Part shown: piece after piece, positions 5,279-54,879 of the stretch | Numbering within the stretch: the stretch's first letter is position 1 | How the letters are laid out: every line of letters starts with the position of its first letter | Source: Straminergon stramineum | Taxonomy: Eukaryota; Streptophyta; Bryopsida; Hypnales; Calliergonaceae | Assembly (NCBI GenBank): GCA_963920665.1 | Contig: OY987273.1 | Coordinates: 10,294,501-10,358,500, forward strand | DNA length: 64,000 bases | Direction: 5' to 3' | The notes under the pieces: generated by a model | What the model was told of the DNA's origin: nothing | Database searches by the model: none | Seen by the model: the letters and a program-made list of their open reading frames with translations, nothing else | Position numbers and translations under genes: made by a program

Positions 5279-5286
5279 TCTCCAAG
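5279..5286. other. 8-bp target-site duplication of giant hAT copy 1, left
   Basis: TCTCCAAG lies immediately outside the left terminus. The partner at 26528-26535 is TCTCCAGG, 7 of 8 identical. On the TNP2 strand the duplicated bases make Ala-Trp-Arg appear at the end of the N-terminal half and again at the start of the C-terminal half. Confidence 0.85.
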
Positions 5287-5289
5287 CAG

Positions 5290-5608
5290 GGTTGACAGGG
5301 CGTCTTGGCGCAGCCACCAGCATCCGTGTCGGCGACCCCCCCGGACGTCCTATGACATTCGCAAAATCACGTTTTTACCCTAGGGTAATTTCCCGTCCAT
5401 GACCCCGTCCGCACCGCCATCTGCGGTTTCTACGGCCTATCCGCCTGTCCCCGACCATGTCCGCGACCTCGTCCACGGTTTCTGCGGCCCGTCCGCCATC
5501 CCGTCCGCTCGTCCGCAACCCCATCCGCGGATTCTGCAGCCCATCCGCCAATCCGTTGGCCCGTCTGCGGTCTCTGGAGCCCATCCGCCAACCTGTCCGA
5601 CCGCTTAA
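5290..5608. promoter_or_regulatory. Left terminal region: TIR, subterminal palindrome and GTCCG island
   Basis: After the terminus comes a stretch sharing short blocks with the right end (GGTTGAC, GCGTC, GGACGTCC, ACATTCGC). A palindrome TTTACCCTAGGGTAA follows near 5374-5388, then about 200 bp of CCCGTCCGC/CATCCGCC-type repeats (5394-5607). GC content is far above the flanks. Overlapping open frames here are a by-product of the repeat and I do not call them genes. The pattern resembles subterminal transposase-binding arrays, but binding is inferred. Confidence 0.65.
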
Positions 5609-6164
5609 GACTCCCCGAATTTAGTCTCTATCCTTATTTTTTTATTCTAAGAGAATTTCTAATGCGATTTTATTTTTGAAATTTGGTACAGTTCATGCTC
5701 ATTTCTAAGAGTCCTTAGCAATGAACAAAAAGAACATTGCAATTTACAAATTTGTAAAGAGAAAAGTCATTTATTTTCATAATTCATTTTTGAGTGTTGC
5801 AATAGAATTTCAAAGGATTTTTTTAATAAATATACAAAGAACCGGTACTCAAAATAACAAATTAATTACGGTTTCGGGTTTAGGAAAATATTGGACACAC
5901 ATACATTTTGTAACCCATTCATTTAGAGCTTAATTTCCTATTTTCCTTTGTTCATTTTATGAAAACAATGCAATGAAAAAAAAATTGAGGGTCTAAATTG
6001 GAAACCCAAAGGCTTCTAAAAATCCAAGTGTCGTAAAGTCCTAAACCTTTTTGAAAAAACACTAAAATTGAATCACTCTCATTTGTGATGAATTTACTAA
6101 TTACGTCTCTTCATAGTTGATTCATTATAAGTATACACACTAAAACAATAAAACCACAATTGCT
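5609..6164. other. AT-rich non-coding spacer
   Basis: No supported gene. The 70-residue frame at 5721-5933 has no recognisable domain, and the part of copy 2 that could test it lies beyond the window. Confidence 0.6.
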
Positions 6165-7094
6165 TTAACCCCTAAAGGACCATTGTTCCCTCGGGGGACA
6201 AAATGGATTTTGGGCAGGTTCCTATGACTTCAATTTTTAGTCAAACTTTTTGAAACTTTCTCATAAGATAGAAAAACTGATAAGCTTCGTGGGAATATAA
6301 TTTTTATTTCAATCGGTGCCCGGGAGCAAAAGTTATGCCATCTTAAACATAATTTTCATATCACTGGGCAGAAAAATAAATCCACAAAAAATTGAAATCT
6401 AATTTAAAATTTTTTTTTCTTATAGATTATATTTTTGTCTACATGTGAAGCTTTGATTCATTCCATTTGGATTAGTAATGTGAAAGTTATGAACAATATT
6501 GTTTTTTGGGCAATATGAGCATCTTCTTGAAAAAATAACTTATAGGATTCATTTCTGAATGCAATTTTCACAATTTTGCAAAAAATATTGTTTGACAAAG
6601 TTAAATTTGTTTGCTAAAACAATCTCACCATTGGGATTATTGAGTTTCAATCCCATCTTAGAGCTATTAATGATTTAGTTTTTCATGTAATCTTGGACCT
6701 ACTTCTACTTAACAATTTTTTAGAGAATGAAAATCAAGAGTTTTTCTTTAGAAATTTTTTTCCTAGAACATCAACTCAATTCTTCAACACAGAAAATTTT
6801 AAATTCACAGTCCCTAGTGCAAAAAATTTCAACAAAAGGTGGTCAAAGTCATCTGAAATTGCAGGCCAGTGTTCAAAAAAACTTCTTTTTCCAACTTTGA
6901 ATGCTAATATCTCTCAATCTGTGCAATAAAAATTCATGAAATTTTTACCCCATGTTCTGAGACAAATAAAGTACAAGATCCAATGGTTAGATTTTTTTTA
7001 ACTATTTTTTTGGGATTTTATAGGTGAACACAGCAGAAATGGCAGTTTTGAGTGGTTTTTGACAGAAAAATGGCCTTGGTCCTTTAGGGGTTAA
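6165..7094. mobile_element. piggyBac-type MITE, 922 bp with TTAA target duplication
   Basis: The element runs 6169-7090. It starts CCCCTAAAGGACC and ends GGTCCTTTAGGGG, a perfect 13-bp inverted pair, and is flanked on both sides by TTAA (6165-6168 and 7091-7094). TTAA duplication and a CCC-start terminus are signatures of the piggyBac superfamily. The interior is AT-rich with no transposase, so it is non-autonomous. A related tail (GGCAGTTTTGAGTG followed by CTTTAGGG) occurs near 17110-17165 and in copy 2 near 57850-57905. Confidence 0.75.
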
Positions 7095-7545
7095 CGGGTC
7101 GTCATGATAATTCAAATATCAATGGAATTGTTGGAACACAACTTCTAAGAAGGTCCAAGTAATTCCATATCATAAATGAATGGTCTTCTTCCAAGACTTA
7201 TTCCAAATGAAATAGAACGGGCTCAGAAACTTTTGCACCCACACATCATACATCATGCAATTTGTCATACAAGCTTGTCAACTAAATAACCATCTACATT
7301 CAAGAAGAAATATTGCACTTTGCACTCAAACAAGAGATATTTTTGATTTGTCAAAAATTGATACTCATTCAAAAAGAATTCAAATACATGGAAAAATTCA
7401 AAATGTATGTCCAATTTCACATATATTGACATACTCTAGGGGTGCATATATACTAAGCAATCTACATGCATAAATCCAAAGTTCTACATTTATTAAATAT
7501 TTATAAAACTCTATATAGTGCACTCTTGCACTATATTACTAAATA

Positions 7546-9027
7546 CTAATATGAATGTCGGAAGTGTTCATCCGGCATAGGCCAATTGAATTGGCTAGTG
7601 AACCGATTGATGATGTGGGCCAAACCACCCTGATAACCATCACCTCTTTGACAAAGCCGATCCAAGTATTGGTGAAACACAATTCCCAATTGGTGGTGGC
7701 TAAACATGGCCATTGCATTTGTTTCCCGTTGCAATTTGCTATAGTTCTCTGACATGCATTGTTTATTGATCCTTTGAGCTATTTTACCAATTGCATATTC
7801 CTCCGATGCACGTGGTAAATGTGGAATGATTTCCACATTTGCATCTCTTCTATGCAAATATGCAATGCTTGGATCCACCTACCACCTCCTTGTTAAAGCT
7901 TCATTCATTTCACTTGTAGATGTGAACGTATACAAGGATTTCATCGGTTCGGTAGCTACAGTAGTCATGCCCCAATCGCAAATGCCAATGAAAACACGTG
8001 ATTCATCATCAGAAAAATGAAACATGATGTTGTCTGGAGAAATATCATTGTGTAGATGTCCAAATACATGTACCGCATTCATGATATGCACCAATGCCCA
8101 AGCAAGCTCGGTGCGCTTCTTCCGAAACCGAGCGAGATGAAAAGCTTTAGTCACATCGGACTTTGTTGGGTTCAAATACTGTAACCGAACATATATGTTG
8201 TTTGGATAATCGTTATCCAGGTTCAACATTTGCCGAAGTGTTCCGCCATTCCACCAATACAAGTACCCTTCATTTGTTCTTGCATGAAGTGCAATAAAAT
8301 GTATAATTCCTGAATGTGGAATCCTCACTGCCATTGATTCATTTTGATATTCCAACTTTGCAAGCTGAGGTTGCGTACCGTGGTGGTTGGATATCTTTGT
8401 TGTGAACTCCCAAGATGGAGCTATCCCTAGACATCCTTCAATTCTCACCCTCCGAATCGTTGCATATCTTCCCTTCATGATTAAGCCATCTTCAGGAATC
8501 ACCTGTGCAGTGTCCGGAAGTGCTATAAGATGACGTCTACCCATATCCAATTGAGTAAGACCCTCATCGCTAGTCCACCAACCCAATGACCCTCGTCTAT
8601 TACGCCTCTTCGCAAATGGGGCGCAACGCCCAATAAACAATTGAGCTTTGAGAATGACTTGCTCAAAGGCTTCATCATTTGCACGATGTTGTTTCTCGTA
8701 TTTTCCGAGAACCACATCAGCGTTCCACAATGCATCATGCACCTTGTTCTCCAAACATTTGTTGAAACCCCTCTTCTCCGTCTCATGTTGCCATTGCGGA
8801 ACGTATAAGGCATCCAACATTCTCTGCGTCATGTCTGCCTTGAATTTGGATGGACACTCCTCTCCATATCTTACATATTTTGTGTCAAGAGACACAGTGG
8901 TTTCCAATTCATAGAATTTTGCAATGCATTCGGTCATGAATGCTTTGCATGCACCGGATGGAATTTCCTTACTTTCCACCTCCTGTACCACTTGTTTTCC
9001 CTTTGCCGCCTTCTTCGATCTTGGCAT
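7546..9027 (-). pseudogene. Protein-kinase-like cargo gene of hAT copy 1, one internal stop
   Basis: About 490 codons from the ATG at 9027, beginning with a basic MPRSKKAAKGK stretch that could be a nuclear signal. The first roughly 170 residues have no domain I recognise. Kinase features follow: GRYATIRRVRI as a glycine-loop-like strand, a Lys-containing strand (TTKIS here, AAKIS in copy 2), HLHNDISPDNIMF as catalytic loop with HND in place of HRD, and GICDWG in the DFG position. Both Asp residues and the loop Asn are present, so catalysis is conceivable but unproven. A TAG at 7879-7881, shared with copy 2, separates the kinase core from a C-terminal lobe-like part (VDPSIAYLHRRD to the end). 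It may be an ancestral nonsense change or a mis-seen intron. A GTCCG island lies 200-600 bp upstream. Target unknown. Confidence 0.7.
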
Positions 9028-9189
9028 CGTGATAAATTTTTAATACCCAAAATTTGTAACTAAAACTTCGAAGTTCGCTACAAAAAATGGCAATAGTGGG
9101 GCCCCCAAATAAGACTTCCGCCTTCCCGAGGAGAGGAACCAATGGAGGACAAACCACCAAGCTCTCCACTCCACACTTGCAAAATGCAA

Positions 9190-9610
9190 GGGGCAAGGCA
9201 AAAGTGATTGCGGACGGGCCGTCCACCCCTCTTATACGAGGCAAATGGCTCGTCCCCATCCGCCTCCTCGTGGCCGTCCGATCATGTGGACGGCATTCCG
9301 TCCACCTCGTCGCAGTCGTCTGATCATTCGGCCACACTCCGACCACCTCGAGATGGCTGTCCGCCTTGTCGTGGCCGTCTGATTCTGGGGACGGTCTTCC
9401 ATCCACCCCAAGCCAGCCGTCCAACCGTACAGACAGTCATCCGTCCACCTTGAGCCAGCCGTCCGATCAAGAGGATGATCGGCGTTCGCCAAATCCAACG
9501 ACTGGCTTGTCGCGGACGCTGCGAGCTCGTCCGATCGGACGGATGGCAGGCTGTCCGTAGGATCGGACGGTGTGGATGGCGTGGATGCAGTAGCATGTCC
9601 GGCGACGGCA
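9190..9610. promoter_or_regulatory. GTCCG-type GC island upstream of the kinase gene
   Basis: About 400 bp rich in GTCCGATC/GTCCACC/GGACGG words in both orientations. Many overlapping open frames on both strands arise from the lack of stop words. The counterpart in copy 2 is at 61890-62330. The position just upstream of the gene start suggests a promoter or a transposase-binding array; this is inference. Confidence 0.55.
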
Positions 9611-10724
9611 AACAGATGAAACGAGGTGGATGGAAGAGATGAATTGCACGATCGGAGATTTTAATTTCTCTTGAACATCTCTAAGTCAAACATAGGTATC
9701 ATATTCAATATTTCAGTTTCAAACCGAAGTAAGAATCAAGTAAATCATCTATCATGGAAATGAAAAAAAATTATAGAGGGATAGTCGGTGACGTTTGCTT
9801 GTTTGAAATACTCTCACCATTGAGATTCTCATGTTTACATAATTCTTTCTTAAAATTGTTAATGTTCTAGTATCTATCTTGAATATATTCAACTTATCAA
9901 TTCTCTTATGAATAAAAACTAAACATCTTTTGGGGGAATTTTTCTTCCTACATTCTCATGCTCTCGTCTAAATTCTTCAAGTCTTCAACATACAAAATTA
10001 TAAAATCGTACTCATAAGTGGAAATATTTATTGTTTCAATAATTAGAAGCCAAAAATCTAGTCAAGCAAATAGCAAAATCATTTGTTTCAATCACCTTGA
10101 ATGCAAATAGCAAAATATCTTACAATCTATGTGGGTTAAGTTTTTGAAATTACTTCTACACATTCATAAATTGCTATAGTACAAAATCGTACAATCTGAC
10201 ATGCCAAAAACATTGTTCCTACATTTTCTAGTTCTTTGTAATTGAAATGGCAATTCTAAATCACTAAATGGTCTTGGATGGAAAAAAGCCTTCAAACTTC
10301 TAGGGTTTAGGGTTCAATTTCTAATAGCAAATGAAACTAAAATGGTGGTTCTCACTATTCTACAAACCTCTATTGTATATTTGGGACATCTTTTGCATTT
10401 GCAATTCACCTATTCACATTGAATGATTGAAATGAGAAAATTATAGAAAGTGGTCCAATACATTTTCCATTTTCACAAATATCCATTAACCCATAGTCAT
10501 ACATCAATGGTATTAAATCCTAAAATTTACATGACATAAATATCACTTTATTAAAATATAAAAATACAATGTATTTGTATCAAAATCACAAAAACGTGAT
10601 TACAACTCGTCAAGAGCATTGTGCTATATTTGCCGCACTCTCCCGTCTATGTACATTACAATGAGTGAACCATACAGTAAAACAAACATAAGATGACTAG
10701 AATACCATACTCTGCTTAACTACT
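9611..10724. other. AT-rich non-coding spacer with a short TTTAGGG motif
   Basis: No gene is supported. It is collinear with 60828-61889 of copy 2. A TAGGGTTTAGGG stretch lies near 10301-10312. This is probably the 3' flank of the short zinc-finger gene and the 5' spacer of the kinase island. Confidence 0.6.
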
Positions 10725-11807
10725 TTACTTGGAATCGGAATCCAAATCGGAATCCTTGTTTTCATTTGGGCCTAAAGGATGTACCCCAATATATGGTCCA
10801 CCCCCATAGTTGTAACCATATCCACTTGATGCACCTCCTTTTCCATATTCATTTCCATAAGAAGGACCTCCAAAGGTTGGAGGAGGAATTGGAGCACTTT
10901 CACTTGATCCGCCATAATAAGGGCCTCCCTGATGCCCATATGAACCATGTGTAGTCGATCCAGAGTAGTATTGAGAGCCTCCTTGGCTAGAACCACCATA
11001 TTGACCATAGTGTGTCGGTCCATGGCTTCCTCCTATACTTTGAGAGCCAACTTGGGGGGCATTACCATAATCTAAACCACCTGTCCCATCTCGTGATCCA
11101 CGTGCATTATAGTCACGGTAGTAGGACCCATCATGTTGCCGACCCCGGTCTTCCACGCTTCGACGCATGGCCTCTTGTATTTGTTGTTGGTACTCAATGT
11201 CTTCCTGATCTTCTCGACGTTCGTGTCTCTCACCAAATGTCACAGGTGCTAGATCATCTTCATCTGACCAATCATCTTCAGCATCCTTCAAGACGACCGA
11301 AGGAAGTCCTCCATAGCCTCGATTGGACCACTCCAGCATGCAATCGCTTGGTCCAATCTAGTTAGTAGGAATTATGGCTTCCTCGCGAGTTAAATTCTTG
11401 ACATTGCGCCCTGCAACCGTGCGCCAATCTACTTCTTTATGGAGTACTATCTCTGCCCAAATCATGGCCATGTTCGAGTAGTTCATGACGTTTGGTTTGG
11501 AGCTTGGTAAACGTGATGCAAATGTTATCTCCTCGTAGTGGCGATCAAAGTGCTTGCTCTTACATGTGAACATTTGTCCCTCCCAATGACGAACTTGCAC
11601 CTCTGCGCGATCATGTGGCCATAGTTTGGAGAGGTGCATCATTTTGACATACTTCTTGCATGTTGTGCAATCCCATATTTTCTTGGGCTCCTTTTCCCAT
11701 CCCTTCTCCGCAACACAAGTTACGTCTTCCAAATCTCTCCAATTGATCTCTTGTGATTTCCCCTTCTTACTACCTCCACCACTTCCACGCGACATGATAA
11801 CCTCCAA
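10725..11807 (-). pseudogene. Short zinc-finger cargo gene with Gly/Ser/Tyr-rich tail (copy 1)
   Basis: About 360 codons from the ATG at 11807, read through one TAG at 11358-11360; copy 2 has TGG (Trp) at that codon. Residues 1-25 are basic and Gly/Ser/Lys-rich. Residues 40-110 contain TCKKYVKM, then HLSKLWPHD, then CKSKHFDRHYEE, a Cys/His pattern that could bind zinc. NYSNMAMIWAEI and KEVDW follow. The same motif order is seen in the long cargo gene at 18868-21671, so the two are paralogues. After an acidic stretch (DAEDDWSDEDD) the tail is low-complexity, rich in Gly, Ser, Tyr and His (GGSSQGGSQYYSGS), like RNA-binding or condensate-forming proteins. I do not recognise a named family and assign no function. 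Confidence 0.65.
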
Positions 11808-12200
11808 ACCTCAATTAATAATGAACCGAAAGGATTACAAAGTTTAAATCCAATTTCTGCCCGCTTTGGCTAAATGTACCAAATGAAAAGTAAGAATTTG
11901 GATTAAAACAAATTCCACCTATTGTTACTAACAACCAAATCAACCGTAAACTTGAACACCTTGAGTTTTTGACAACCCAATCAACTCAAACACGGTTCAA
12001 GTAATTAAGAACACTAAATGAAGTTCATAAAATTAAAGACTTATAAGTTGGGGCAACCCCCTAATCACTCAAACCAATATGTGATAAAATAAGTTAATAC
12101 GAACACAATCATTCATGCACCAAGCCGGAAGGGGCGCGCAAATTCTCGAAGGCACTGGATCACCTACTCCGGAAGGGAAACGATTGTGAAGAAATGAGCC
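11808..12200. other. 5' flank of the short zinc-finger gene
   Basis: AT-rich sequence, collinear with about 59340-59738 of copy 2. It probably contains the promoter and 5' UTR. No further feature seen. Confidence 0.5.
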
Positions 12201-12204
12201 GTCC

Positions 12205-12910
12205 GCGCCGCCATTTATGCAGTCGGTGCTTTAGGGTATGCGGACGCTGCCGACCGCATCGGACGGCATGAAGGCGAACGGGCAGATCGAGTGGTCCGAA
12301 ATCGCGGTTCGCTGGATTGCACGGTCAATGACAAGTAGCGGACGGAGTAGCGTGGACACGGACGGGAAATGCGGACGGACTCCGGACAGGTGGACGGCGA
12401 CTGCGGATGGGGACTACGGACGCGCGGACGGGCGGGTGGACGGGCAGGCGGACGGAGAGGAAGGGCAGAGGGCAGAGGTGGGCGGGACTGTGGGAGGGAA
12501 GTGTTTTTCAATTTCAGAATTGTTACTTGGGCGGACGGGCGGATGGGCACGCGGATGGAGAGGAAGGGCAAAGGGGAGAAGTAGGCGGGACTACGGGAGG
12601 GAGGTGTTTTTCAATTTCGGAATTGTTACTTGGGCGGTCGGGTGGATGGGCGCGCGGACGGAGAGGAAGGTCAGAGTAGAGAGGTGGGTGGGACCATGGA
12701 GGGAGGTGTTTTTCAATTTCAGAATCCTTACTTGGGCGGACGGTCGGTCGGGTGGACGGAGAGAAGCATGGGAGGGGAGGGGAGAGCTGGATGGGAGGGA
12801 GGGAGAAAGGGAGGAGTTTTTCAATTTCTGAATTGGTGGACGAGCAGACGGGCGGGAGAGGTGTTTTGAACTATGTGGAGATGGGTGGACGGACGGTCTA
12901 GCGGGCAGAG
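12205..12910. repeat. GTCCG-type GC island with four ~105-bp tandem units
   Basis: A G-rich island (GGGCGGACGG words) whose inner part, about 12480-12850, is a tandem array. The block GTGTTTTTCAATTTC begins near 12501, 12604 and 12706, and a variant lies near 12814. Each unit joins this AT-rich block to a GGACGG segment. Copy 2 has the matching array at 58620-59050. The 197-residue open frame at 12238-12831 simply translates the repeat (FFNFRI...WADG) and I do not call it a gene. It sits 400 bp or more upstream of the short zinc-finger gene. Confidence 0.7.
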
Positions 12911-12948
12911 CTTGCATTACATGGTGAATTAAGAAAAGTAGAGAAATT

Positions 12949-15900
12949 TGTCGTACATGTAGCATGCGGTAAATACCATTTACAACACCCAAACGTGTAA
13001 ACTAACTCGAAATATCATCCCAGGGGATTCTAGTATGTTGTTGTAAGCCTAGGTTATCCGTTCTACCAACTTATGCTCTCTGTTTCCGGAATCCAATCCG
13101 GATTCACTCTGTTTCTGGATCCGTCACTTCACTTACAAACACTAGTTTTTGGTACCTCTGTTTTATCCTCAGAGGGTCCACCTTTGATTGTATAGAGGGG
13201 TAGGGACTCACCACTCGTATTCCTCACACTCTCTTCTCTCTCTAAACTACCCAAACCACATTTAGACCAAGTGTTGTATTAGATCAGCCCAGAAACACTC
13301 TCACAACTATCCGGATGGCCAATCCGGAAAGCAAGTCACGTAGAGCGGCCTCTAGACTTCTTCACTACAATGACAGACCAACAGAGACCGGATCTAAGGT
13401 AGGGATTGTAAGTCGTTTGCTAAACTAATCCTAGGGTTTGGCTGACCTTCCGATAAGTGATATGGGGGTTCTTCCACTATGGTTGTTTATCTCCACACGG
13501 AACCCTCCTTGGCATTCCGGATCTGCACCCACAACACTCCAAATCGGATTCCCATTCTAGGAGTTTAAAGCCACGTGCTCAAGACCAAAATCACAAGTCT
13601 AGACTACATGACAGACGTTCCTCCACACTTAAACCCAAGTCCCCTCAGATCCAGATTCCTCCTTTTCTCCTCCTCAATTACACTTCACATACTCACAAGG
13701 GATCACAAGGAAGTTGGATATACGACAGATCAATCCCTGAGGGTCCACTTGGTGGCTCAGATTAAAAGAAGGATGATAAAATACAAACTATAACGCTAGG
13801 ATGGAATGAGAGGCAACAAACTTGCCCCACCCATGAAAAACTCAAAAACACCCAAAGCCAAAAAGGCCAAAAAGGCACTCGGAAATCCAAGTGACCACTC
13901 ACAAACTCCCTGAGAAATCCGGGAAAGTGAGATCCTAGAAACCCGGAACCCGGTTCCACACCTTGAAATCTGGATTCGGTTCAAAATTAAAGTCCTATCT
14001 GCCTAAAGAAAAATTCTATCTACTTCCCCTTCCGCGCTTTCTTCTAGCTGCTCCCGCCTTGAGTTGCTGGTGCTCGCGTGGATGACCTCAGAGTTGCCTT
14101 CGGGGTTGTCTTGATGGGGGTCATTCGTAACACCACCTGGGTCTGTATCTTTTGGATTTCCGGAGGAGAGTATTCTGCTTCTTCCTCGTCCTCGTCCACC
14201 GATCCGGTTCGGTACTCTTCCTCCTCAGATTTCTCAATCTGAGTTATCTCCCTTTCATTTTCCTCGCCTGGAGACGTCTCATCCAACACGATAGGCTCGA
14301 TCTCCTTCCTGGGTTGCTGCTCCTCCAGCATATGCTCGAATTCCTCCGGATGAGATTGGGCCGGATTCAACAACCCCCCAATCTGCTCTATCAGTTGGCC
14401 ACGGGCTTGGATGTGCGGTGTCGGCAGCGGCTCCTTTTCCGAAAGGTTGAACACTAGGACGGGTGGAGAAATTGTAATCTCTGGAGGCGCCAACTCCCAT
14501 CTTGTATCCGATTGCGTGCTTGGCTCAGGTGTTGACTTCACGCTTCCTCGGATTGTCTTCTCCAACTGCTTGGAGAAGGGTTCCGTGGAGTACCGGAGAG
14601 TCTCCCGCGAGGCTTCCGGTTTTGAAGGTAGTAGCATTGAGGCGGTGAGCTTGACGGGTGTCTCCGTGTCGAAATGGATCTCCGGAAAGTTGGAGAAGTC
14701 CATTACCCAGTCGGGGTCGATCCGCCCAAGCAGCTGCCTCATCTCCTTGAGTGTGAGCTCTATCCGTGAGGAGAAGTCCACGAGTATCCAGATCACCTTG
14801 GATTCGGTGAGGTGCCCTTCCTCGGTCAACCAACTCTAGGTTCGAGCCGCCTTCATCACCATATCGGCCAGCTTGTCTACTAAGCCGGATAAGTTCTTCA
14901 GCAGCTGTAGGGCTTCCTTCTCCCTTTGCTTCGCTGCAGCCATCTCCCCTTGCGCCCAGCTCAGTCTTGCCTGAAGATCCGCTTTCTCTTTCTCTAGGGC
15001 TACGATCTGCTTGTCCTTCCACTCGAGGACTTCCAAATTTGGAAGTTTCTTCAACGCGTCGAGGATGTCTTCTGGTTCCGTCTTCAATTCTCGGCTTATC
15101 CTCCTGAGCAGATCCGTCAAGCTCTCTTGGTACTCTTGCGCTTGGAGTACCCAGTTGAATCCGGTCTTGAAGAACCCGGATATGCTTCCTTCCTCCTCTT
15201 CGGAGATCCTTTGTTGAGCTGGAAGCTTTCCCCGCGATGTCGGATTCGTCGACTTCTAGTGCCTCCGCTCCAAGGGTTGCTCATCCTCTTCCGGATCCTC
15301 CTCCTCTTCCACCGGTAGCTACTCCACCGTCACCTCTTTCATCAGGCCATATTGGAGGATGGTTGCTCCGGTGTTGTACTCCACCATTTCCGCATCGCTG
15401 AGAAGCTCTGCGTGGTGGTAGAGATGGAAAAGATACGGCCCTATGGGGCTGGTCTTTCCTTTTCCCACATTGGCAGCAAGCTTGGCGACTACGAATCCAA
15501 TCACCTTGCCCCAACTGATTGGTCTACCCTCAAAAGCACCAAATATGGTGTTTGTTACTGTAACCGTAACCCGAGTAGGCTTTTCCGGATACAGGATGGG
15601 GATCAGGAACTCTAGGACATGCCTCTGTTGTGGATCTAGGCAGTCACTAATCGCATACCCTTCCTTGGAATGGGCAGCGTTCTTGAATTTTCCTACCGTA
15701 AACTTGTCTGTCTGGGAAGCTAAACCGGATCCCTTCTTGGGAAATCCGTAAACCTTAGCCCAGACTTCATCAATCCAGGTTTGAGGCCTTCTTCTCACTG
15801 TCAACTCATACTGGTTGGAAGCTCCTACTATGAGTTCCTGAATCATCCGGTCGTTCTTTACGGTCCGCGGCCGCATGAACAAACCGACACACCCTATCTC

Positions 15901-16426
15901 ACTAAGGTCATCCTCTAGCTGGGATCTATCTCTCAGCCTTTTCGGAATGGTTGGACAAACCATCCGGCTAGTGACCAAAGTCTTCTGGATATCTCCCTCC
16001 GCCATCTCACACGGCTCAGAAAGTTGCGTATACTCTAGCTTTTCACCTGAACACTAACTCACCACTCTTTCACTCAACTATACACACACAAAACAGTTGT
16101 GGAGAAAGAGGGAGAACAAATGGGAGTGGCGGGGTTAAGTACCCGTCAAAATACTGACCGTTCTTAAAATGGACCATTCACCCGTAACGGGTTCCTATTT
16201 CTAGACCGGAAGTCTAGACAGTAGGCTGTCGCTATCTGGGTTTCCGGAATCCGGATCCGGCCTGGATCTCGTTACAGATTAGCTGGAGTGTTCTCTTAGT
16301 CTAAATGAGTTGTTTAGGCTAAGAGGGCTGTAATACTTTTTGCCTATTAGAAAGTTTGAAAAATTCTACATAGTTATACCCTTATAAATACTAACATGGT
16401 GACTTCTAAGATTACGGCTCGCGACA
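12949..16426 (-). mobile_element. Unclassified 3478-bp element nested in hAT copy 1
   Basis: The site is flanked by AAATT on both sides (12944-12948 and 16427-16431). Copy 2 at about 58565-58580 shows the uninterrupted site with one AAATT, which proves insertion. The ends are TGTCG and CGACA, a 5-bp inverted pair. A 5-bp duplication with TG..CA ends recalls LTR elements, but I could find no long terminal repeats. One long, broken reading frame occupies 16005-14044 on the minus strand. It arrived after the two giant copies separated, or was lost from copy 2 by exact excision. The superfamily is not determined. Confidence 0.8.
14044..16005 (-). pseudogene. Long ORF of the nested element, broken by in-frame TAG stops
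   Basis: A single frame of about 650 codons begins MAEGDIQKTLVTSRM at 16005. It is broken by TAG codons near 15319, 15265 and 14836 without loss of frame. The first 228 residues look globular (RRRPQTWIDEVWAKVYGFPKKG). Then comes an acidic stretch, then a Leu/Glu/Lys-rich coiled-coil-like region near 15060-14880 (VALEKEKADLQARLSW), then a Pro/Glu-rich acidic tail ending at 14044. No protease, reverse transcriptase, integrase or DDE motif is seen. It may be a gag-like or accessory protein of a non-autonomous element. All the stops are TAG, consistent with decayed CAG codons. Confidence 0.55.
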
Positions 16427-16431
16427 AAATT

Positions 16432-18010: not shown

Positions 18011-18016
18011 TTTTGG

Positions 18017-18066
18017 AGGGTTAGGGTTTAGGGTTTAGGGTTTAGGGTTTAGGGTATAGGGTTTGG
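18017..18066 (+). repeat. Interstitial telomere-type TTTAGGG repeat
   Basis: About five consecutive GGGTTTA units, one altered to GGGTATA. This is the plant telomere motif. Copy 2 holds a shorter version at 55452-55487. It sits directly at the breakpoint of a 1.5-kb difference between the two copies. Confidence 0.85.
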
Positions 18067-18189
18067 ACTTGGGAGAGCATGTTTAAATGTGGGAAGGAAT
18101 ATCTGGAATTACCTTTTCTTACATTAATACTACATTGGATACTTCTAGCATTCAAGAGTATTTTTTGTACATGAATCTATCCTTCTCAG

Positions 18190-18650
18190 AATTCAATGCT
18201 TTCGGACTGCTGGCAGACTGACGTTAGGTGGGCTCCAAAGCGAGGTGAGCAGTGCAGGGTGTTGTTGGTCAGCAACGGTGGACGGCCAGGTGTGGGGTCG
18301 GTCGGCGATGGCGGACGGCCTAAGCGGACGGCCAAGTCCGCCATTCATGCGAACAGGCACGGCGGACAGCCTAAGCAGATGCCCAAGTGTAGGGCCGGTC
18401 AGGGATGGCGGATGGCCTGAGCGGACGGGATGGTTCAGGAGTGGCCTGCAGTTCCGATTGGCAGATGGGAGGTCTGGTCGCGGTCCAGAGCGGACGGATA
18501 GTTGCTTGTCCGCCACCGAAGCGAGTAGATCGGTGCGCATCCGCCAATCCCAGCGGTCGACCCGTGTCCGCCGTGGCGGACGACAGGTCCGGGTCCGCTT
18601 CGAGGCGGACGTTTTTTAGGTTTCGTGGTGGACGAGTATATGGGGGGACG
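18190..18650. promoter_or_regulatory. GTCCG-type GC island upstream of the long zinc-finger/RING gene
   Basis: A run of GGCGGACGGCC, GCCCAAGTG and CCGCCACCGAAGCG-type words, with high GC content. Copy 2 has its counterpart at 54880-55320. Open frames in all phases here are repeat artefacts. It ends about 200 bp before the likely gene start. Confidence 0.55.
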
Positions 18651-18867
18651 GCCTCCTCATTTGCTCTCACTTCTACTCTCCTTGAGCGCCAGGTTGGATG
18701 TGCTACTACTACTTTATGTGTCAGTTGCTCCTACAGGGTGGAGAGTGGAGGTCCTTGAGCTTTTGTTACTATTGCTGATTTATGTTGTTACTTATTTACA
18801 CACATCTCACGGTATTCACGTGCCGTGGTACTATTTTCGAAGGGCTCAAAAATTCAAATCATCTATT

Positions 18868-21671
18868 ATGGAAGATTAAGGTGTTCCTACCAACAATAGG
18901 AGGACTTCAGGAGGTGAAAAAAAGAAAGGGACTAAAGCGAAGGGGGCCCCTCATGGGCTTCACTATGAGATTTTAGATGACCCGAACATCAAAGCGGAGA
19001 GCGGTTGGCAGGAGGAGGAAGGGGAATATTGGACCTTCAAAACATGCAAGAAGTATGTTAAAATGTACCACATTGACAAGTTGTGGCCTCAAAATTGCCA
19101 CATGGTGCATACACATGGTTTTTGTTGTAAGCCACGTAATTGCAACAATAAGCATTTTGTGCATCGATCGGAGGAGGTGTGGCAGACGCTATTTGGGGAC
19201 AAGCCAAGGAGTAAGGGATGCATAAATTACAGTGTGGCGTCCATGGTGTATGTAGAACTCATTTCAAACCGCAAGGTAGATTGGAGCACTTATCCATCCA
19301 AGGTGGATTCTCCACTTTTACTTCAACCCAATCAAAAAGACATTCCTAATCTATACGATTCTCAGGCAGAACCAAGTAAACCAACAAAGACCCCAAAAGT
19401 ATTAAAAAATACTACAACGCGTACAACAAAGGTCTCCGAGGTTTTAGGTGATGCAGTACTATTAAGGCCCGTAGAAGTGGCACAACCTTGCACAGAAGTG
19501 AGCAATGTCTCCTCGGGATGTGTTGACGGAGAGGTTTTTGTAACTCCTCGAACGTGCTTCACATCCACACCGAATGTGATAACATTGGGTGAACAAAGCA
19601 TGGCCCCAAGCAAGGAAACTACAACGAATGAAACAACCTTGGGTGGTCTAGACATGGCTGCAAAGAAGGAAACACTGGTAGAAGAACGTGGGTCACCTTT
19701 TTTGCCAGATGGAGAGGTCAATGAGGAACAACTTGCAAGGACCAATGCTAGAATTCAGGGTTACATAGATAGTAAAGCTCTTGAGAGCTTGGTGGAATAT
19801 GCAACTCCGATTTCTCAGCTGCCAACGACGCTAAGGTGAAGCCAAACCTTGAGCCCAATTCGAATGTTGAGTCCGCATCAAAACCTAAGCCCAAGTCGAA
19901 GGTTGAGCCCAAGACAAATATTAAGCGCAAGGAACTGGAGGGCATCCACATTTGGCAACTTTAAGCTTGGCTCAATTGGAGATTCTTTGTTCCATACCCA
20001 CTGCCAATCAATTGAAAAAGTTGTTAGAATGTTGTAGTCATTGGTGAGTACTAGTAGAACAACATCTTCATTCTAATCCCGAAAATGAGGCAAGCAATTC
20101 TAGTCAGCCCACAGGAAAAGGGGGCTGGGATACTATTTCGCAAACCGCATACAGATTGAGAACTTCAGCTCAAATGGTAGTTGAAATTACTCCTTGGGTT
20201 AGGGACGTGGCAGAGGAATTTTCCAAAATGGCACCTGAATTGTTGATTGGTGCCTTGGCTTTTTGCAATTTCATCGAGAAAGTGGCACCAATTCTTAAAG
20301 GTGGCGTGATGAACTTAAAAAGTTTGATGGCCTTAGAGGAAGACATTCATCAGCTGAAGATGAAGTGTGAGGACTTGGAAATGAAGCTGCAGCTGTCGTA
20401 GAAAAACATGGAGTAGGAATGTTGTCACAAGGTGGTTCAAAGAAAGCGCATTGAAGAATTGGAGCTCGAAGTACAAAGAAGGACAATGTTGCACACATCG
20501 ATTGGGCCTTGGAAGTAGAGGAAGGGTGAGTCCCTTACAACATGCTTTTAGTGCACATCAAGGAGAAAGAGAAGACAGTAGTACATGCTTGCGATCTAGC
20601 CTCAGAAATCTTGAAGAGTCATTGTAGCCTTTGCCAAGGTCCTTTTGGCCCTGAAGGATCCCTAACCATGGGCCAATGTCGCCACACTTTTCACGTGACA
20701 TGCATCGTGAAAGCATCACTAATTCGTTCGGTTTGTGCTGAGTGTCGTTCTCCTCTGAGCCCTCGGTTCTATGAAATGCTTGGGATTTTGGAAGATATGC
20801 CCCTTGGCCACGAATACAACCGATGGACTCTTCCTCTTGATCAAGGGCCATACCAGTTCCAGAATTTCTCGCATTGGGGGCGACCTCTCACATGGGATTC
20901 AATTGATTGCCGACATGGATTGTATGAGTCTGAAGAGCCAGTGGATCCTTTCATGTGGATGATTGTTAACAGAGAGGTGGAGTTGCGGGCCCGGGATATT
21001 GAAGATGGCGAGGCTCGTGAATTGTTTTGTCGCAACATGGGGGGCCATTGGAGGGTGCAACACAAGAAGTTTTTTCGGTTTCCCGACAAAGAAGTGCGAA
21101 AAGGGCCCAAAAAAACTTGGGTAGAGGTGGAGCATGCTCAAGAGTTCAATGAGCAATACGGAGCTTATAATCACACTTTGATTGGTAGGGCCCTTTTCTT
21201 GTCAAAGTTGAAGTAGCTACTAAAGCTCATGCTCTTGTTGAAATAGATGGGGAAACAACTATAGGGCATTCATTTGTGGAGGTAGCTGGGGCATTTGACA
21301 AGAGGATAAGTGACATCGTAGCTAAATGGAGGGGGTTTCTATTGGACGATTTTCGACCAATAGGATCACCCATCGAAGTTGATGACAAACAGGTCAATGT
21401 GTTCATAGATCGAGTGGATGCTGCGTTGAGGGCCTTGAAGGTTGAAAAAGTAGATTTGTCTCCGAAGCGAAGCTCAAAACGGAAGAGAGAGGATGACGAT
21501 GACGATGACCACTCTCCTGAAACCAAACGACAGTTTATAGTGGTGGACATGGAGGTTAGATCCGGAGGAGGTGTTGTCTACAGTCCTAGGTCAAATACTC
21601 GACGAATGAGTGCAAGACTTTTGGCTAAAGAGGGGCCATCTCACGATTTAGGAGAGGGTAGTGGTTCTTAA
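18868..21671 (+). pseudogene. Long zinc-finger/RING-H2 cargo gene (copy 1)
   Basis: The N-terminal part (18868-19839) encodes a basic GGEKKKGTKAKG stretch and then TCKKYVKM, HIDKLWPQN, a Cys cluster (FCCKPRNCNNKHF), NYSVASMVYVEL and RKVDW. This is the same motif order as the short gene at 10725-11807. A Thr/Lys-rich linker follows. The segment near 19950-20400 is helical (LEILCSIP, VEITPWVRDVAEEF). The frame 20542-21216 holds a RING-H2 finger with ligands Cys28, Cys31, Cys46, His48, His51, Cys54, Cys65 and Cys68, then a conserved tail (WVEVEHAQEFNEQYG). RING fingers usually act in ubiquitin ligation. 21276-21671 adds an acidic, basic C-terminus. Stops and frameshifts are frequent, and about 590 bp present in copy 2 are missing at about 20475. 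Introns are possible. The start is uncertain, and an open hydrophobic frame precedes it at 18625. Confidence 0.65.
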
Positions 21672-22086
21672 GTATAAGAGAGGCTTTCCTTATTTTATTA
21701 TGTTTAAATGTTTAATAGTATAGAAGTATACCGGTGAGTGTGGCTTGAATGTTATAAGGGTTGAGTACTACTAGTAATTCATTGTACTCATGATGAATTT
21801 TGATTTGTTTTGAAGTTCTTTATATATCCAAATATGAAATATCAATATATATATATATATATATCTTTGAATTAATCATTTGTTTTTCTTTCTTTTAAGT
21901 TCATGCTATGATGATTTATGAAGGACAACTTTTTGTGAAGTATATTTTTTTCATGCTCATCTAGAAATTTTAAATTATAAGACCCTTTGACAAAACCATA
22001 ATTTTCTAAAATCTCCTCATTGGCTCATTCCATCCCTAAATCCCTATTTTGTCCCACATCTCTTGAAGCATTGAACATTTGAACAA
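21672..22086. other. Spacer with an (AT)n microsatellite
   Basis: 3' flank of the RING gene with a TA-dinucleotide run near 21844-21864. The matching place in copy 2 (about 51062-51084) is instead a GATA run. No gene. Confidence 0.7.
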
Positions 22087-22315
22087 TTGAACACAACCTA
22101 CCCCAACTGTCCGCTTGACCGCCCGTTTGCCTCAAACCACCCGTCCGCCCGACCTCTCGCCCGCAATATCCATCCGCCCATCCGCGTGTCTTCGCGTCAC
22201 TCCAACCGCTTGTCCGTCCGCCCGACCCCTATGGGCCCGACCACCTGTCCGTTGGACCGTCCGTCCACCCGACCGCCCGTCTGCTGCGCAATCAGGCGAC
22301 GGTGGATAGTGTGTT
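22087..22315 (+). promoter_or_regulatory. GTCCG-type GC island upstream of the hAT transposase gene
   Basis: About 220 bp of CCGTCCGCCCGACC-type repeats. It ends about 290 bp before the transposase ATG. Copy 2 has only a decayed remnant, about 50755-50860, with many C-to-T changes. Confidence 0.55.
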
Positions 22316-22604
22316 TTGTGGATTCAAAAATGGTTTGCAACGATCAGGCCAGTTTGGGAGTCTATAATTGTAGGAAAGAAGTCATTTGAGAGCACTCTTG
22401 AAAACTGAATGCTAAGATTTCCAAGGGCTAGGAGCTGCAATTTTTGTGTTCCTTGCTTGGTAATGTATAGTTCAATGGATGGGAGGGCCTTGAATATCAA
22501 CGCTTTGTGCACTCATTTTTTATTATATTTCGACATTTTTCATTTGGTTTCCACATTTTGAATTTGATTCCAATATACGGAATTAAAATTTGTGCCTTGC
22601 CACT

Positions 22605-25600
22605 ATGAGCAAGGATTGGTCTGGTTGGTATGGTACCCCATCAACCGGTAAGGTAAAGTGCAAGGCTTGCAACTTGGTGTTTGCCAAGAAGATAAGCCGT
22701 ATGTTGAGCCATTTAGGATATGAAGGCCCATCAGCTGTTCGTGATATAGGAGTGAGTCTTTGTTTGCAATTGACGTCGGATGTTCGAATCTTATTTCTTC
22801 GATCTAATGGGGCATTTCCGTAGAGACTGATCATTGACAATGTAGATGTTGGTAGCATGTGTATGGTCAGGAGGGATTTTTCAAATGAGAGGGATATGGC
22901 GCGTTCTACTCAAGAGGACTCATGCATAGTACTGGAAGAATTTGTTGGTGTAGGATCCGAAGTAAACCGAACTACAAAAACATCCAGTGATCGTGACACT
23001 CCAAGGGCATCAGGTAGTAGACCTCAAAGACAGAGTAGTCTAGTGGATGGCTTTGATTTCGTAGCAAAACACAATTTGAATGTAGTGTGGGCCAATTTCT
23101 TTTATGCGGCAAACATACCATTTGCCATAGCTCGAAATTTGGCATTTAAAGAAGTAGTGAAAAAAACAGCTGAGTACCGTGGGCCCTACGCTCCACCATT
23201 GTATCATAATTTACGCCATAAATTGCTTGACCAAGCGAAGACTGACATCAAGACAAAGCTTCATAGTCGAACCAAAGATAGCATTCGAAAGTTTGGAGCA
23301 ACATTGTCTATTGATGGATGGAGCTCGGTTACCAATCGACCATTGATAAATGCCATGCTTGTATCTTCTATGGGTGAGCAATTTTTTGGGATCGGTGGAT
23401 ACAAGTGGAATCGAAAAGAATGCTCCTTTTTTGGCCTCTGTCTTGGAAAAGTTTATAGAACAAGTAGGCCCCACAAATGTTGTGCAAGTGACTGCAGACA
23501 ATGCTCCTGTAAATCCAGCAGCATGGAATATGGTGTCGAGTAAATATCCGCACATTTTCTTTCAAGGTTGTGTGGTGCACGCCTTGAATTTGTTGCTTCA
23601 AGATTGGGGGAAGCAAGAATGGTTGAAGGAGCTAGTGGAAAAGGCCCAAACCATTGTGAAGTTCTTCAGATTGCAGCATATGCTGATAGTTATATTTCAA
23701 TAGCACGAAACGAAGAATAGCTTATTGATGTCGGTGAAAACAAGATTTGCCTCAAATTTCTTCATGATTTCTCATTTGTTGAAGGTCAAGATTGGATTGC
23801 AACAAAGTGTGGTGGATCCACAATGGGTAGAATATGTGCTCAAGTTACGAAACATGAAGAACGCAAAATCTCATACGGAGTCTTGGGAGGTGAAGAAGAC
23901 AATTTTAGATGAGCATTTTTGGGCCCGTGCCACTAATTTCCGAGAATTGATGGCTCCTATGGTGTTTGGTCTACGTGATTTGGATGCGAAGACACCATGC
24001 ATGGGCAAGGTGTTGCACATCATGAGGAATTTAGAGAAGCATGTCTTCTCTTTACGAGAAGAGCCCTTTGGTTTGTCCTCGGACTTAGCCATTCCTATCG
24101 AAAAGTTGTTTGGTAAGCATCGGGAAATGATACAGACTGATCTACATTATACAGGAGCTCTTTTGAACCCTTATCTTCTTCACGATAAAGAACTAGCTGA
24201 CGATCAAGATGCAATAGATGCATGCAAGCGCGTTATTAGGAAAATATGTCAACCGGGAACTGATCCTGACGTAGTGAAGGAGTTTGTAGCATTTCGACAC
24301 GGAGATCCTCTGTTCCACGACATGTTCAATCCGGCGGAGCAGAAATCGTTGGCACATACTTGGTGGGATTTTGAGGGTGCATGTGGCAAGCTCATTGCTC
24401 CAATTGCAAAGAGGATTTTGGCTCAATCGGTGTCATCATCTTCATGTGAACGAAATTGGAGTAGCTACTCTTTTGTTCACAACAAATCCCGAAATAAGTT
24501 GAGGCCATTGAGAGCAGTTGATTTGGTGTATGTATACACCAATTCCAAAGTCATAGTTGCATCGAAGGAGGAGGATGAAAAGAAGTGGTACCATGACAAT
24601 GTGGAGTCCAAAGATTGGAAAGGGCCTATCTCAGAAGACGAGGATGATGAATCTATATCTGATGATAGAGATGTTGTGAATTATGATATGCACAATTCTG
24701 ACGAAAAAATGTTTGAGACTCCTAATCAAAACAATGATGACTTCGGAGTCGCGGATGGAGACATGTATGAGTTTCGATCAGATGAGGATGATTGCAGGCT
24801 TGATGATGATGTACCTTCGATAGCTAGATTTGTGGATGGAACTGGATTCATGAGTAGCAAAAATCTTCTACCAAACGTGGAGGATATGTATGTAGAGATA
24901 AGGGCGACCCATAGGACAACGATTGCGAATGATGGGAGTCTTGAAAAGGATGAAGTAATTCCCATTTCCAATGCTCCATCCCTGATAATGGCGGTAGAAA
25001 AAAATGACCAATATGAAGACAAAGGAGGATGTGAGGTGAACGTTGAAATGAACGTGTCCAATGGAATTGTTGCGTCAATAGTGATATCGGCAAGCAAGAA
25101 ATGTAGGGAAGCAAATATTGGAAATGCCAAACCACACAAAGTACAAGACAATGTTGAAGCACGTTCGATGGAGTCAGGCAGCCCAATTTTTGTCAACAAT
25201 GGTGTTGGCAAAATACACCTCATGGAAGATTCTCTTGAACCACCACGTAGCACTCCTCCACGTGCACTATTTAAAAGCCATGCCACGACATTGGATGGTT
25301 CAAGGAAATCACGGCTTGGAAAAAGACATTTGTCTCCTATGAAAGAGATGAGTTCTAGAGGCAATCTAAGTCGAATCATTTTATCATGTACCAATGATGA
25401 TGATAAGGATGAGACATTGGTTTCAATGTTTATTCAACATTGGGGCCATCCACCACGCCAATCCTTGAAATCATTAGGCCACACATTGTAGTCTGTGAAT
25501 GCAATGTAGTTAATTATTCAAGGAGCGCCAAAAGCAGAGATATCACAGGGTGAAGACTCCATTAAAGCTCGGTAAAAAAGAATAATGCACCCCTTTGCTA

Positions 25601-25911
25601 CCTCCCCAACCAAAAGACCAAATGTGGGTAGAACCCCACTTGATACCTATCAAGTTTCTTCAAAGAAGAAAATGAAAACAATCCCTAGCCTTAAGGAAGG
25701 CATTGGTAAGTCTATTTTAAGAGCCAAAATGGAGAAGAAGACCAGTAGATCAATGAGATCATTGACATCTACACAAGTACAAGGAGTGAAAATTGTACAA
25801 TCTTCATCAAACGACATGGAAGAGACATCTAGTGATGAAGACGACCGATGGGGAACTAGATGTGAGAGTAGCGGGGCTGAGGTGAAAGGAGATAGTGATT
25901 ACAAGCCTTAG
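22605..25911 (+). pseudogene. hAT transposase, copy 1 (BED-like finger, DUF659, hAT C-terminal domain, long tail)
   Basis: Roughly 1100 codons from the ATG at 22605. A BED-like finger (KCKACNLVF with a later SHLGYEG) is at residues 15-45. DUF659 begins about residue 220 (ATLSIDGWSS, with a candidate catalytic Asp), then VTADNAPVN (second Asp) and GCVVHALNLLLQDW (the C-x2-H of hAT cores). The dimerisation region near 24430-24540 has SSSSCERNWSSYSFVHNKSR. A tail of about 450 residues, acidic then Lys/Ser-rich, follows and is open in copy 2 as well. Lesions here are TAG at 22821, a one-base T gain near 23383, TAG at 23701, TAG at 25489 and 25507, and TAA near 25573. Copy 2 has CAG at 22821, 25489 and 25507. 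The protein would bind the TIRs and cut and join the element. A related but inverted gene is at 47151-50458. Confidence 0.85.
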
Positions 25912-26395
25912 AGATTCAAGGGATGTAGGCTTAGGTGTTTAGGTGCTTATGATACATTGAACATGTAATGGCAATTGATTGATTGAAGCTTCTATTGCAT
26001 TTGGAGTTTTCATATTCATGTTGAAAATATGATTATTTTTTTTGGAATTACAAAACCAAGAAGAAGTCCCCCCAAAATTGATTGTGTTCCTCTTTCTTTG
26101 TATGAAGCATGATACATTGCAAGATATATATACAATGCAACAATTTTGACTTCATGATTGTCATAGAATCATAGATTTGGTAATTTTCAAGGTGAAGAGA
26201 ATTTTGAATTTTTTTTTTATTCCTTTCCCTTGATAATTCATAATTGCAATTATAATATACAATTTCTTTGGTTGAGTACACTGTAGACGATAGTCCATAA
26301 CTCCATATGTTATTGTAAAAAGCATTCAAGGAATCAAAGTTTACTTGAAGGACTTGAAGCTTTGTATTAAATAACTAGCCACTAGCCGTCCGCCC
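25912..26395. other. 3' flank of transposase gene and right-end approach
   Basis: AT-rich; collinear with 46690-47150 of copy 2. It probably holds the 3' UTR. No gene is supported. Confidence 0.55.
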
Positions 26396-26527
26396 GCCTG
26401 TCTGGATTTACCCAGGGTAAATTTGCGGACGGTGTCTTTTACCCACCGGAGACGCAACATTCGCAGAGTCCGGATGTCCGATTTTTGGACGCGATTTTGC
26501 CCGAGACGCTCACTTTCGTCAACCTTG
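26385..26527. promoter_or_regulatory. Right terminal region of hAT copy 1
   Basis: Short GTCCGCCCG block, then a palindrome ATTTACCCAGGGTAAAT at 26406-26422, then blocks shared with the left end in inverse order, and finally the terminus GTCAACCTTG at 26518-26527. The 8-bp target duplication follows. Confidence 0.75.
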
Positions 26528-46531: not shown

Positions 46532-46700
46532 TAGGGTTAACGAAAGTGAGCATCCCAGGCAAAATTGCATCCAAAAATCGGATGTCCGGACTCCGCGGAT
46601 GCTGCATCTCCGGTGGGTAAAAAACACCGTCCACAAATTTACCTTGGGTAAATGCGGTCGGGCGGATGGGTGGATGGGCGGTCGCTAGTTTTTTAATACA
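46532..46700. promoter_or_regulatory. Inner terminal region of hAT copy 2
   Basis: Terminus TAGGGTTAAC, then blocks shared with copy 1, then palindrome ATTTACCTTGGGTAAAT near 46637-46653, then a short GTCGGGCGGATGG island. The first C of the terminus has become T. Confidence 0.7.
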
Positions 46701-54717: not shown

Positions 54718-54879
54718 GAGATGTGTGTAAATAAGTAACAGTGTAAATCAGCAATAGTAACAAAAGCTCAAGGACCCCCATTCTCCACCTTGTAGGAGCA
54801 ACTGACACATAAAGCAGTAGTAGCACATCCAACCTGGCGCCGAAGGAGAGTAGAAGTGAGAGCAAATGAAGAGGCCGTC

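What the first reader, a model, noticed from the sequence alone, without database searches (positions are those of the whole stretch)
5287..26527. A 21-kb hAT transposon carrying a kinase, two zinc-finger genes and a RING domain
Seen: termini CAGGGTTGAC and CAAGGTTGAC, an 8-bp flanking duplication, precise interruption of a TNP2 gene, and an internal hAT transposase. Known: hAT elements are normally a few kb and encode a transposase with little else. Inferred: this is a giant hAT with resident cargo genes rather than a chance capture, because a second copy has the same cargo in the same order. I know of no described plant hAT of this kind.
Basis: partly seen in the sequence, partly recalled or inferred. 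Interest (0 to 1): 0.95.

Follow-up and report, generated by a model that had tools for sequence, protein, structure and literature searches.

The report
Giant four-gene hAT jumping element
Two broken copies of an unusually large plant jumping gene, likely from a moss, carry three extra genes besides the mover enzyme, and in the copy seen whole one short DNA word clusters at both ends and in front of all four genes, so the extra proteins are predicted to recognise and switch on their own element.

Summary
Copy 1 (5287-26527) has hAT-type ends and a 7-of-8 target duplication, sits precisely in a CACTA TNP2-like reading frame and encodes a DUF659-type hAT transposase. Copy 2 (46532 to beyond 64000, minus strand) has the same genes in the same order (91-96% identity in 25 of 33 stretches), and its homology stops at the same terminus.

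Corrections: 3.5 kb of the 21 kb is a later insertion, leaving about 17.8 kb. The second zinc finger and the RING are one gene of about 1,100 aa. Both copies are broken, and their divergence fits neutral decay.

Relatives suggest resident genes: kinase, zinc-finger/RING and transposase occur as long uninterrupted proteins. One fetched contig, about 36% identical in the transposase, has transposase and zinc-finger/RING side by side. Three more pairings are inferred from equal contig lengths.

New: all 33 exact CCGTCCG/CGTCCGC sites of copy 1 lie at its ends or upstream of its four genes, in fast-diverging stretches, resembling the VANC targets of Arabidopsis VANDAL elements. Self-recognition for anti-silencing is my best mechanism; it is inferred. 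The whole-genome search did not complete, so copy number is unknown.

The parts
5279..5286 (.). left target-site duplication TCTCCAAG
5287..26527 (+). copy 1 of the giant hAT (21,241 bp; 17,763 bp without the later insertion)
5287..5296 (+). left terminus CAGGGTTGAC
5405..5516 (+). motif cluster at left end, 4 exact sites
7549..9027 (-). protein kinase gene, one TAG at Trp384, also present in copy 2
   Evidence: family
9210..9570 (.). motif cluster upstream of the kinase, 6 exact sites
10725..11795 (-). zinc-finger gene A (paralogue of the N-terminus of the zinc-finger/RING protein)
12199..12896 (.). motif cluster upstream of zinc-finger A, 12 exact sites, in part a 103-bp tandem array
12949..16426 (.). 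later 3,478-bp insertion, not part of the element
18311..18611 (.). motif cluster upstream of the zinc-finger/RING gene, 6 exact sites
18880..21671 (+). zinc-finger/coiled-coil/RING gene (lacks about 0.59 kb present in copy 2)
22141..22263 (+). motif cluster upstream of the transposase, 3 exact sites
22605..25908 (+). hAT transposase gene (Cys/His zinc-finger-like start, DUF659, hAT dimerisation), 5 stops and 1 frameshift
26386..26432 (.). motif cluster at right end, 2 exact sites
26518..26527 (-). right terminus CAAGGTTGAC
26528..26535 (.). right target-site duplication TCTCCAGG
46532..64000 (-). copy 2, cut off by the window end
47154..50458 (-). copy 2 transposase, lesions different from copy 1
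51266..54660 (-). copy 2 zinc-finger/RING gene, many lesions
59739..60395 (+). copy 2 zinc-finger A (aligned part)
62395..63699 (+). copy 2 kinase, lacking about the first 59 codons

Best explanation
Bases 5287-26527 hold a broken copy of a giant hAT transposon with four genes (transposase, protein kinase, zinc-finger protein, zinc-finger/RING protein), and the two zinc-finger proteins are predicted to bind the CCGTCCG word that clusters at both ends and upstream of all four genes, likely to lift host silencing so that the transposase can cut and paste the element. Shown: ends, target duplication, host reading interrupted, second insertion, gene set, motif layout in copy 1, and transposase beside zinc-finger/RING in a distant relative. 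Inferred: that the zinc-finger proteins, not the transposase, read the motif; that the RING domain acts as a ubiquitin ligase on a silencing or chromatin factor at the element; that the kinase, whose catalytic Lys, Asp, Asn and Asp (roles recalled) are invariant in 27 sequences, tunes the same step or the transposase.
For: Ends, duplication and empty-site reading. Separate second insertion with homology ending at the terminus. Transposase domains; Asp205, Asp266, Glu585 and Cys290/His293 invariant in 23 aligned relatives. Kinase family: 54 hits, 26 of them 478-542 aa, two from Ceratodon purpureus; invariant catalytic residues; kinase fold. Zinc-finger/RING family: 13 hits, 7 of them 1,039-1,140 aa. 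Linkage: L001, and equal contig lengths 17,649, 27,639 and 8,444 (jitter test). Motif: 33 of 33 exact sites of copy 1 in six clusters, 14 of 14 of copy 2 upstream of genes, none elsewhere in the window; first and second of 105 same-composition 7-mers. The upstream stretches diverge fastest and differ in tandem structure between copies. VANC targets are likewise motif arrays in noncoding DNA that form fast-diverging tandem repeats (PMC5735166 passages; PMC10398659 abstract).
Against: No binding, methylation or expression data. The zinc-finger domain was poorly predicted (mean pLDDT 60.7). The motif could be the transposase's own binding site or a promoter element. I set the motif intervals after seeing the bins, so P = 1.9e-18 is not a clean probability. 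Copy 2 has a single exact site upstream of each of transposase and zinc-finger/RING, and at its visible right end no exact site and one decayed form. With the decayed form allowed, 2 of 41 sites in copy 1 and 1 of 17 in copy 2 lie outside the stretches. Between the copies amino-acid changes match neutral expectation (281 seen, 283.7 expected), so this pair gives no sign of selection. Equal contig length is indirect. The motif excess in L001 is weak (5 seen, 1.2 expected, maximum 6 in 500 simulations), and L002 and L003 have none.
Confidence: 0.5

Rival explanations
1. The extra proteins are transposition accessories rather than anti-silencing factors: zinc-finger proteins bind the motif to pair the far-apart ends and regulate promoters (like TNPA of En/Spm, recalled), and the kinase and RING control transposase level.
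For: The motif lies at both ends of copy 1 as well as at the promoters; a long element may need help with end pairing (inference).
Against: 27 of 33 exact sites of copy 1 lie upstream of genes, only 6 at the ends; copy 2's visible end has no exact site.
Confidence: 0.3
2. Starship-like cargo: the kinase and RING genes serve the host or the spread of the element between species.
For: Deep conservation of the families.
Against: All four genes of copy 1 share one upstream motif and two share one N-terminal domain, which points to an integrated system.
Confidence: 0.1
3. Chance capture: a hAT that picked up host genes once (Pack-type), copied locally.
For: Window copies are broken and evolve neutrally relative to each other.
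Confidence: 0.06
4. Nested unrelated elements or assembly artefact giving a false giant.
For: One nested insertion is in fact present (12949-16426).
Against: Second copy at a different site with mostly different lesions.
Confidence: 0.03

Closest known systems
hAT superfamily of plants (Ac and Tam3 recalled as examples; DUF659-type transposases)
   Same: Left end fits the published pattern [T/C]AGNGNNG, 8-bp target duplication (7 of 8), DUF659 and hAT dimerisation domains.
   Different: A 2018 survey of 276 plant hAT sequences gives 7,144 bp as the longest consensus and found none in the moss Physcomitrella (PMC6027215, passages); this one is about 17.8 kb with four genes.
Arabidopsis VANDAL elements with VANC anti-silencing proteins (MULE type, recalled)
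   Same: Element-specific motif arrays in noncoding regions, tandem, fast-diverging, often one orientation (PMC5735166 passages; PMC10398659 abstract).
   Different: Other transposase superfamily; no search for a VANC relative was made; a zinc-finger/RING protein and a kinase instead; anti-silencing not shown here.
Fungal TET/JBP-carrying DNA transposons, including hAT7 and IS3EU with an alpha-kinase gene
   Same: DNA transposons, some hAT, with accessory enzyme genes; order conserved among some families (PMC12730594, passages).
   Different: Fungi; TET/JBP gene; 7-bp duplications in hAT7; the alpha-kinase is reported in IS3EU.
ToxhAT of wheat-pathogenic fungi
   Same: 14-kb element with a passenger gene, once called hAT.
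   Different: Now judged likely non-autonomous Tc1/mariner with TA duplication (PMC12506042, passages).

Membership tests
hAT superfamily | 8-bp target-site duplication | tested here: met
   TCTCCAAG/TCTCCAGG, 7 of 8, at a precise interruption; a second site could not be checked
hAT superfamily | short terminal inverted repeats of the pattern [T/C]AGNGNNG | tested here: met
   left end CAGGGTTG fits; copy 2 right end TAGGGTTA and copy 1 right end CAAGGTTG each miss one place
hAT superfamily | transposase with hAT dimerisation domain | tested here: met
   PF05699 E 8.5e-7, above cut-off in the window; PF04937 E 1.4e-7, below cut-off there; both above cut-off in P0056
hAT superfamily | conserved Asp-Asp-Glu residues (triad recalled) | tested here: met
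   D205, D266, E585 invariant in 23 aligned relatives; the same residues stand in the window reading
VANDAL/VANC system | MULE transposase (recalled) | tested here: not met
   the transposase is hAT
VANDAL/VANC system | dense element-specific motif arrays in noncoding regions | tested here: met
   density clear in copy 1, lower in copy 2
VANDAL/VANC system | protein that binds the motif and removes methylation | not testable with these tools
   no wet data
Pack-type (gene-fragment capturing) element | fragments of host genes, transposase supplied in trans | tested here: not met
   own transposase gene; extra genes full length in relatives
Starship | tyrosine-recombinase captain (DUF3435) | tested here: not met
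   no such hit in the ten window readings scanned against Pfam

The most novel reading that the evidence does not exclude
A moss-centred lineage of giant hAT elements has kept a four-gene system through deep divergence, in which zinc-finger proteins read a private DNA word at both ends and all promoters, and a RING ligase and a kinase take down host silencing there: an anti-silencing system invented independently of VANC, in another transposon superfamily.
Probability: 0.35. Interest if true: 0.88.

Novelty: new variant of a known kind. Interest (0 to 1): 0.76.

Why it matters
The plant hAT consensus elements in the 2018 survey of which I read passages reach at most about 7 kb. A hAT of nearly 18 kb that keeps a kinase and a zinc-finger/RING protein would show that this superfamily can build multi-gene systems. 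Its motif layout makes a concrete prediction, that the zinc-finger proteins bind CCGTCCG arrays, which would test how transposons beat silencing outside the VANC case. The kinase family reaches annotated moss proteins (Ceratodon purpureus, one cluster of 126 sequences), so transposon genes are likely being counted there as host kinases.

Tried and rejected
Selection between the two copies: simple dN/dS gave 0.25-1.13 by piece, which at first looked like constraint; against a null matched for mutation type and CpG context it vanished (400 single-difference codons used, codons with two or more differences or gaps dropped). Stops in the zinc-finger/RING gene even exceed the null (14 seen, 7.9 expected).

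Shared frameshift in the transposase: suspected from ORF ends, rejected by the lesion map, which shows different lesions in the two copies. One kinase stop is shared, and the zinc-finger/RING reading changes frame at about the same place in both copies (residues 291-335 of P0096).

Viral contigs: three scans (kinase, transposase, zinc-finger/RING profiles) found no relatives. Solved structures by sequence: none for the kinase profile, two RING chains for the zinc-finger/RING profile. The zinc-finger model was too poor to search with. No further transposase or zinc-finger relative was found in the spacer or left flank, only a degenerate kinase and patches of similarity.

Papers: nine searches listed no plant giant hAT with these genes; I saw 20 of 339, 20 of 109, 10 of 12,926, 0, 14 of 14, 3 of 3, 5 of 5, 10 of 43 and 0 titles, and the library lacks most subscription journals. 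I read passages of PMC6431247, PMC12730594, PMC6027215, PMC5735166 and PMC12506042 and the abstract of PMC10398659; the rest as listings only.

Full report
WHAT IS THERE. The left end CAGGGTTGAC begins at 5287 and the right end, the reverse complement of CAAGGTTGAC, finishes at 26527. The flanking octamers TCTCCAAG and TCTCCAGG match at 7 of 8 places. When the flanks are joined with one duplication kept, the host reading runs through (...NCEAWRASRHRDG...), although that host gene is itself broken by stops and shifts further out. Its left part carries DUF4218 (E 3.3e-31); I read it as a CACTA TNP2 gene. This is a precise insertion.

SECOND COPY. Copy 2 lies on the other strand from 46532 to beyond the window end. 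It aligns with copy 1 from 7241 to 26524, at 91-96% identity in 25 of 33 stretches and 75-90% in the other 8, and the similarity stops at the terminus. The flanks show no similarity, so it is a separate insertion rather than a segmental duplication. Its right end reads TAGGGTTAAC. Its left end and its duplication cannot be seen. Copy 1 has a 3,478-bp insertion at 12949-16426 with a perfect AAATT duplication that copy 2 lacks. Without it copy 1 measures 17,763 bp. Copy 2 has about 1.5 kb (55479-57017) and about 0.59 kb (52462-53048) that copy 1 lacks; the relative P0096 aligns through the latter in copy 2 but not in copy 1, so it is a deletion in copy 1 within the zinc-finger/RING gene.

THE GENES. 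(a) Kinase, 7549-9027 minus, about 495 aa. Of 54 database relatives 26 are 478-542 aa long; two carry the name Ceratodon purpureus, one of them standing for a cluster of 126 sequences, and one is filed under a Bacilli MAG; the others name no organism. The 26 relatives aligned are 40-71% identical to the window reading, and Lys214, Asp331, Asn336 and Asp354-Trp-Gly are invariant in all 27 rows. The Pfam kinase score is below the curated cut-off in the window and in P0001, above it in P0054. A predicted structure of P0001 (mean pLDDT 80.3, pTM 0.61) matches protein kinases by fold, loosely: best E 3.5e-8, TM-score 0.59 by target and 0.37 by query, rmsd 9.8. No solved structure matches by sequence. 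(b) Zinc-finger A, 10725-11795 minus; its relatives were not searched for. (c) Zinc-finger/coiled-coil/RING, 18880-21671 plus. Its N-terminal domain is a paralogue of zinc-finger A (33-41% identity). (d) hAT transposase, 22605-25908 plus, with DUF659 and the hAT dimerisation domain; Asp205, Asp266, Glu585 and Cys290/His293 are invariant in 23 aligned relatives.

STATE OF THE COPIES. Both are broken. Against the relative P0056 the transposase has 5 stops and a frameshift in copy 1, and 2 stops and 2 frameshifts at other places in copy 2, plus one stop in copy 2 in the N-terminal part that P0056 lacks. The zinc-finger/RING gene has many lesions in each; the kinase has one stop in copy 1 and two in copy 2. 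Two changes may be shared: kinase Trp384 to TAG, where relatives read Trp, and a change of frame at residues 291-335 of P0096 in the zinc-finger/RING gene. Either the parent already had them or they arose twice. Amino-acid changes between the copies fit a neutral null matched for mutation type (281 seen, 283.7 expected, 400 codons; by gene 0.90 to 1.02 of expectation). The case for functional genes therefore rests on the relatives, not on this pair.

RESIDENT, NOT CAPTURED. A scan of prokaryote assemblies with the transposase profile gave three loci that I take for eukaryotic contamination. One, L001 (6,291 bp, filed under a cyanobacterial MAG), has a transposase reading of 680 aa, cut on its 5' side by a stop near the contig start, and about 745 bp on, on the same strand, an uninterrupted 855-aa zinc-finger/RING reading; matches are about 36% and 28-39% identical to P0056 and to the zinc-finger/RING relatives used. 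In the window the order is the reverse (zinc-finger/RING first), so the association seems older than the arrangement. In the protein searches, three contig lengths recur exactly between gene families: 17,649 (transposase and RING), 27,639 (kinase and transposase), 8,444 (transposase and RING). With lengths jittered by 10%, 0.23 coincidences are expected and three or more occur in 0.2% of trials; above 8 kb the mean is 0.005. This is inference: the contigs themselves were not read, and no contig shows all four genes.

ONE WORD FOR THE WHOLE ELEMENT. CCGTCCG and its shifted form CGTCCGC occur at 33 places in copy 1. All 33 lie in six stretches: the left end (4), the right end (2), and upstream of kinase (6), zinc-finger A (12), zinc-finger/RING (6) and transposase (3). 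In copy 2 all 14 lie upstream of genes: kinase 4, zinc-finger A 8, zinc-finger/RING 1, transposase 1; its visible right end has no exact site and one decayed form. None of the 47 lies elsewhere in the window. With the decayed form CCATCCG allowed (CCRTCCG), 58 lie in the copies and 2 elsewhere, both within the 3.5-kb insertion; inside the copies 39 of 41 and 16 of 17 lie in the stretches. I chose the stretches after seeing a density table, so the formal P of 1.9e-18 overstates; but the two words rank first and second of 105 words of the same composition (28 and 25 against a mean of 1.6). Orientation is uniform or nearly so in four clusters of copy 1 (24 of 25 sites), mixed upstream of the kinase (4 to 2) and at the right end (1 to 1). 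Tandem arrays lie in several of these stretches, and unit and number differ between copies. The upstream stretches are also the least conserved parts: 75-84% in five windows; the left end has no counterpart in the window. L001 carries a 21-bp tandem array with CC(A/G)TCCG downstream of its RING gene, but its count (5 against 1.2 expected, maximum 6 of 500) is only suggestive, and L002 and L003 have none.

HOW IT LIKELY WORKS. In Arabidopsis VANDAL elements the VANC protein binds short motifs arrayed in one orientation in noncoding regions; the arrays evolve as tandem repeats and binding removes silencing (PMC5735166, passages; PMC10398659, abstract). The layout here is the same in kind. I propose that the two zinc-finger proteins read the CCGTCCG arrays, that the RING half brings ubiquitin-ligase activity to the element, and that the kinase tunes this step or the transposase. 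The layout is shown; every step of the action is inferred. The main rival is a role in transposition itself, such as pairing distant ends.

KNOWN OR NEW. A survey of 276 plant hAT sequences gives 7,144 bp as the longest and reports none in Physcomitrella (PMC6027215, passages). A review of giant transposons does not contain the word hAT in its main text (PMC6431247, word search). Fungal transposons, hAT7 among them, carry TET/JBP genes, and TET-carrying IS3EU families also an alpha-kinase (PMC12730594, passages). The 14-kb ToxhAT is now held to be likely Tc1/mariner (PMC12506042, passages). Nine searches listed no plant giant hAT of this kind, as far as the rows shown go. I file it as a hAT, a new variant of a known kind.

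LIMITS. The own-genome search was asked 13 times and never answered. Copy number, the left end of copy 2 and activity are unknown.

Noticed in passing
44482-45309 (minus): Degenerate, more distant member of the same kinase family (best match P0054, 29%, E 1.3e-28) between the two copies. Patches in 41100-42956 are 72-87% similar, in the same order, to copy 2 at 55462-57415 (56% over the whole stretch). An older related element probably lies there.
   Followed up: partly
12949-16426: 3,478-bp insertion in copy 1 with perfect 5-bp duplication AAATT and ends TGTCG...CGACA, without internal long repeats; perhaps a solo LTR.
   Followed up: partly
18017-18064: Seven units of AGGGTTT (plant telomere type, recalled) at a junction where copies 1 and 2 differ by 1.5 kb.
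   Followed up: no
L001, whole; P0005: Transposon and kinase genes of likely eukaryotic origin filed under bacterial genomes: L001 in a Synechococcales MAG, P0005 in a Bacilli MAG; probably contamination.
   Followed up: no
38658-39203: 180-bp tandem repeat of two to three units in the spacer.
   Followed up: no
43654-43884: 231-bp imperfect palindrome in the spacer.
   Followed up: no
5287-26527 and 46532-64000: Differences between copies in the coding pieces are mostly transitions (for example 50 of 59 in the kinase), as expected of methylated DNA.
   Followed up: no
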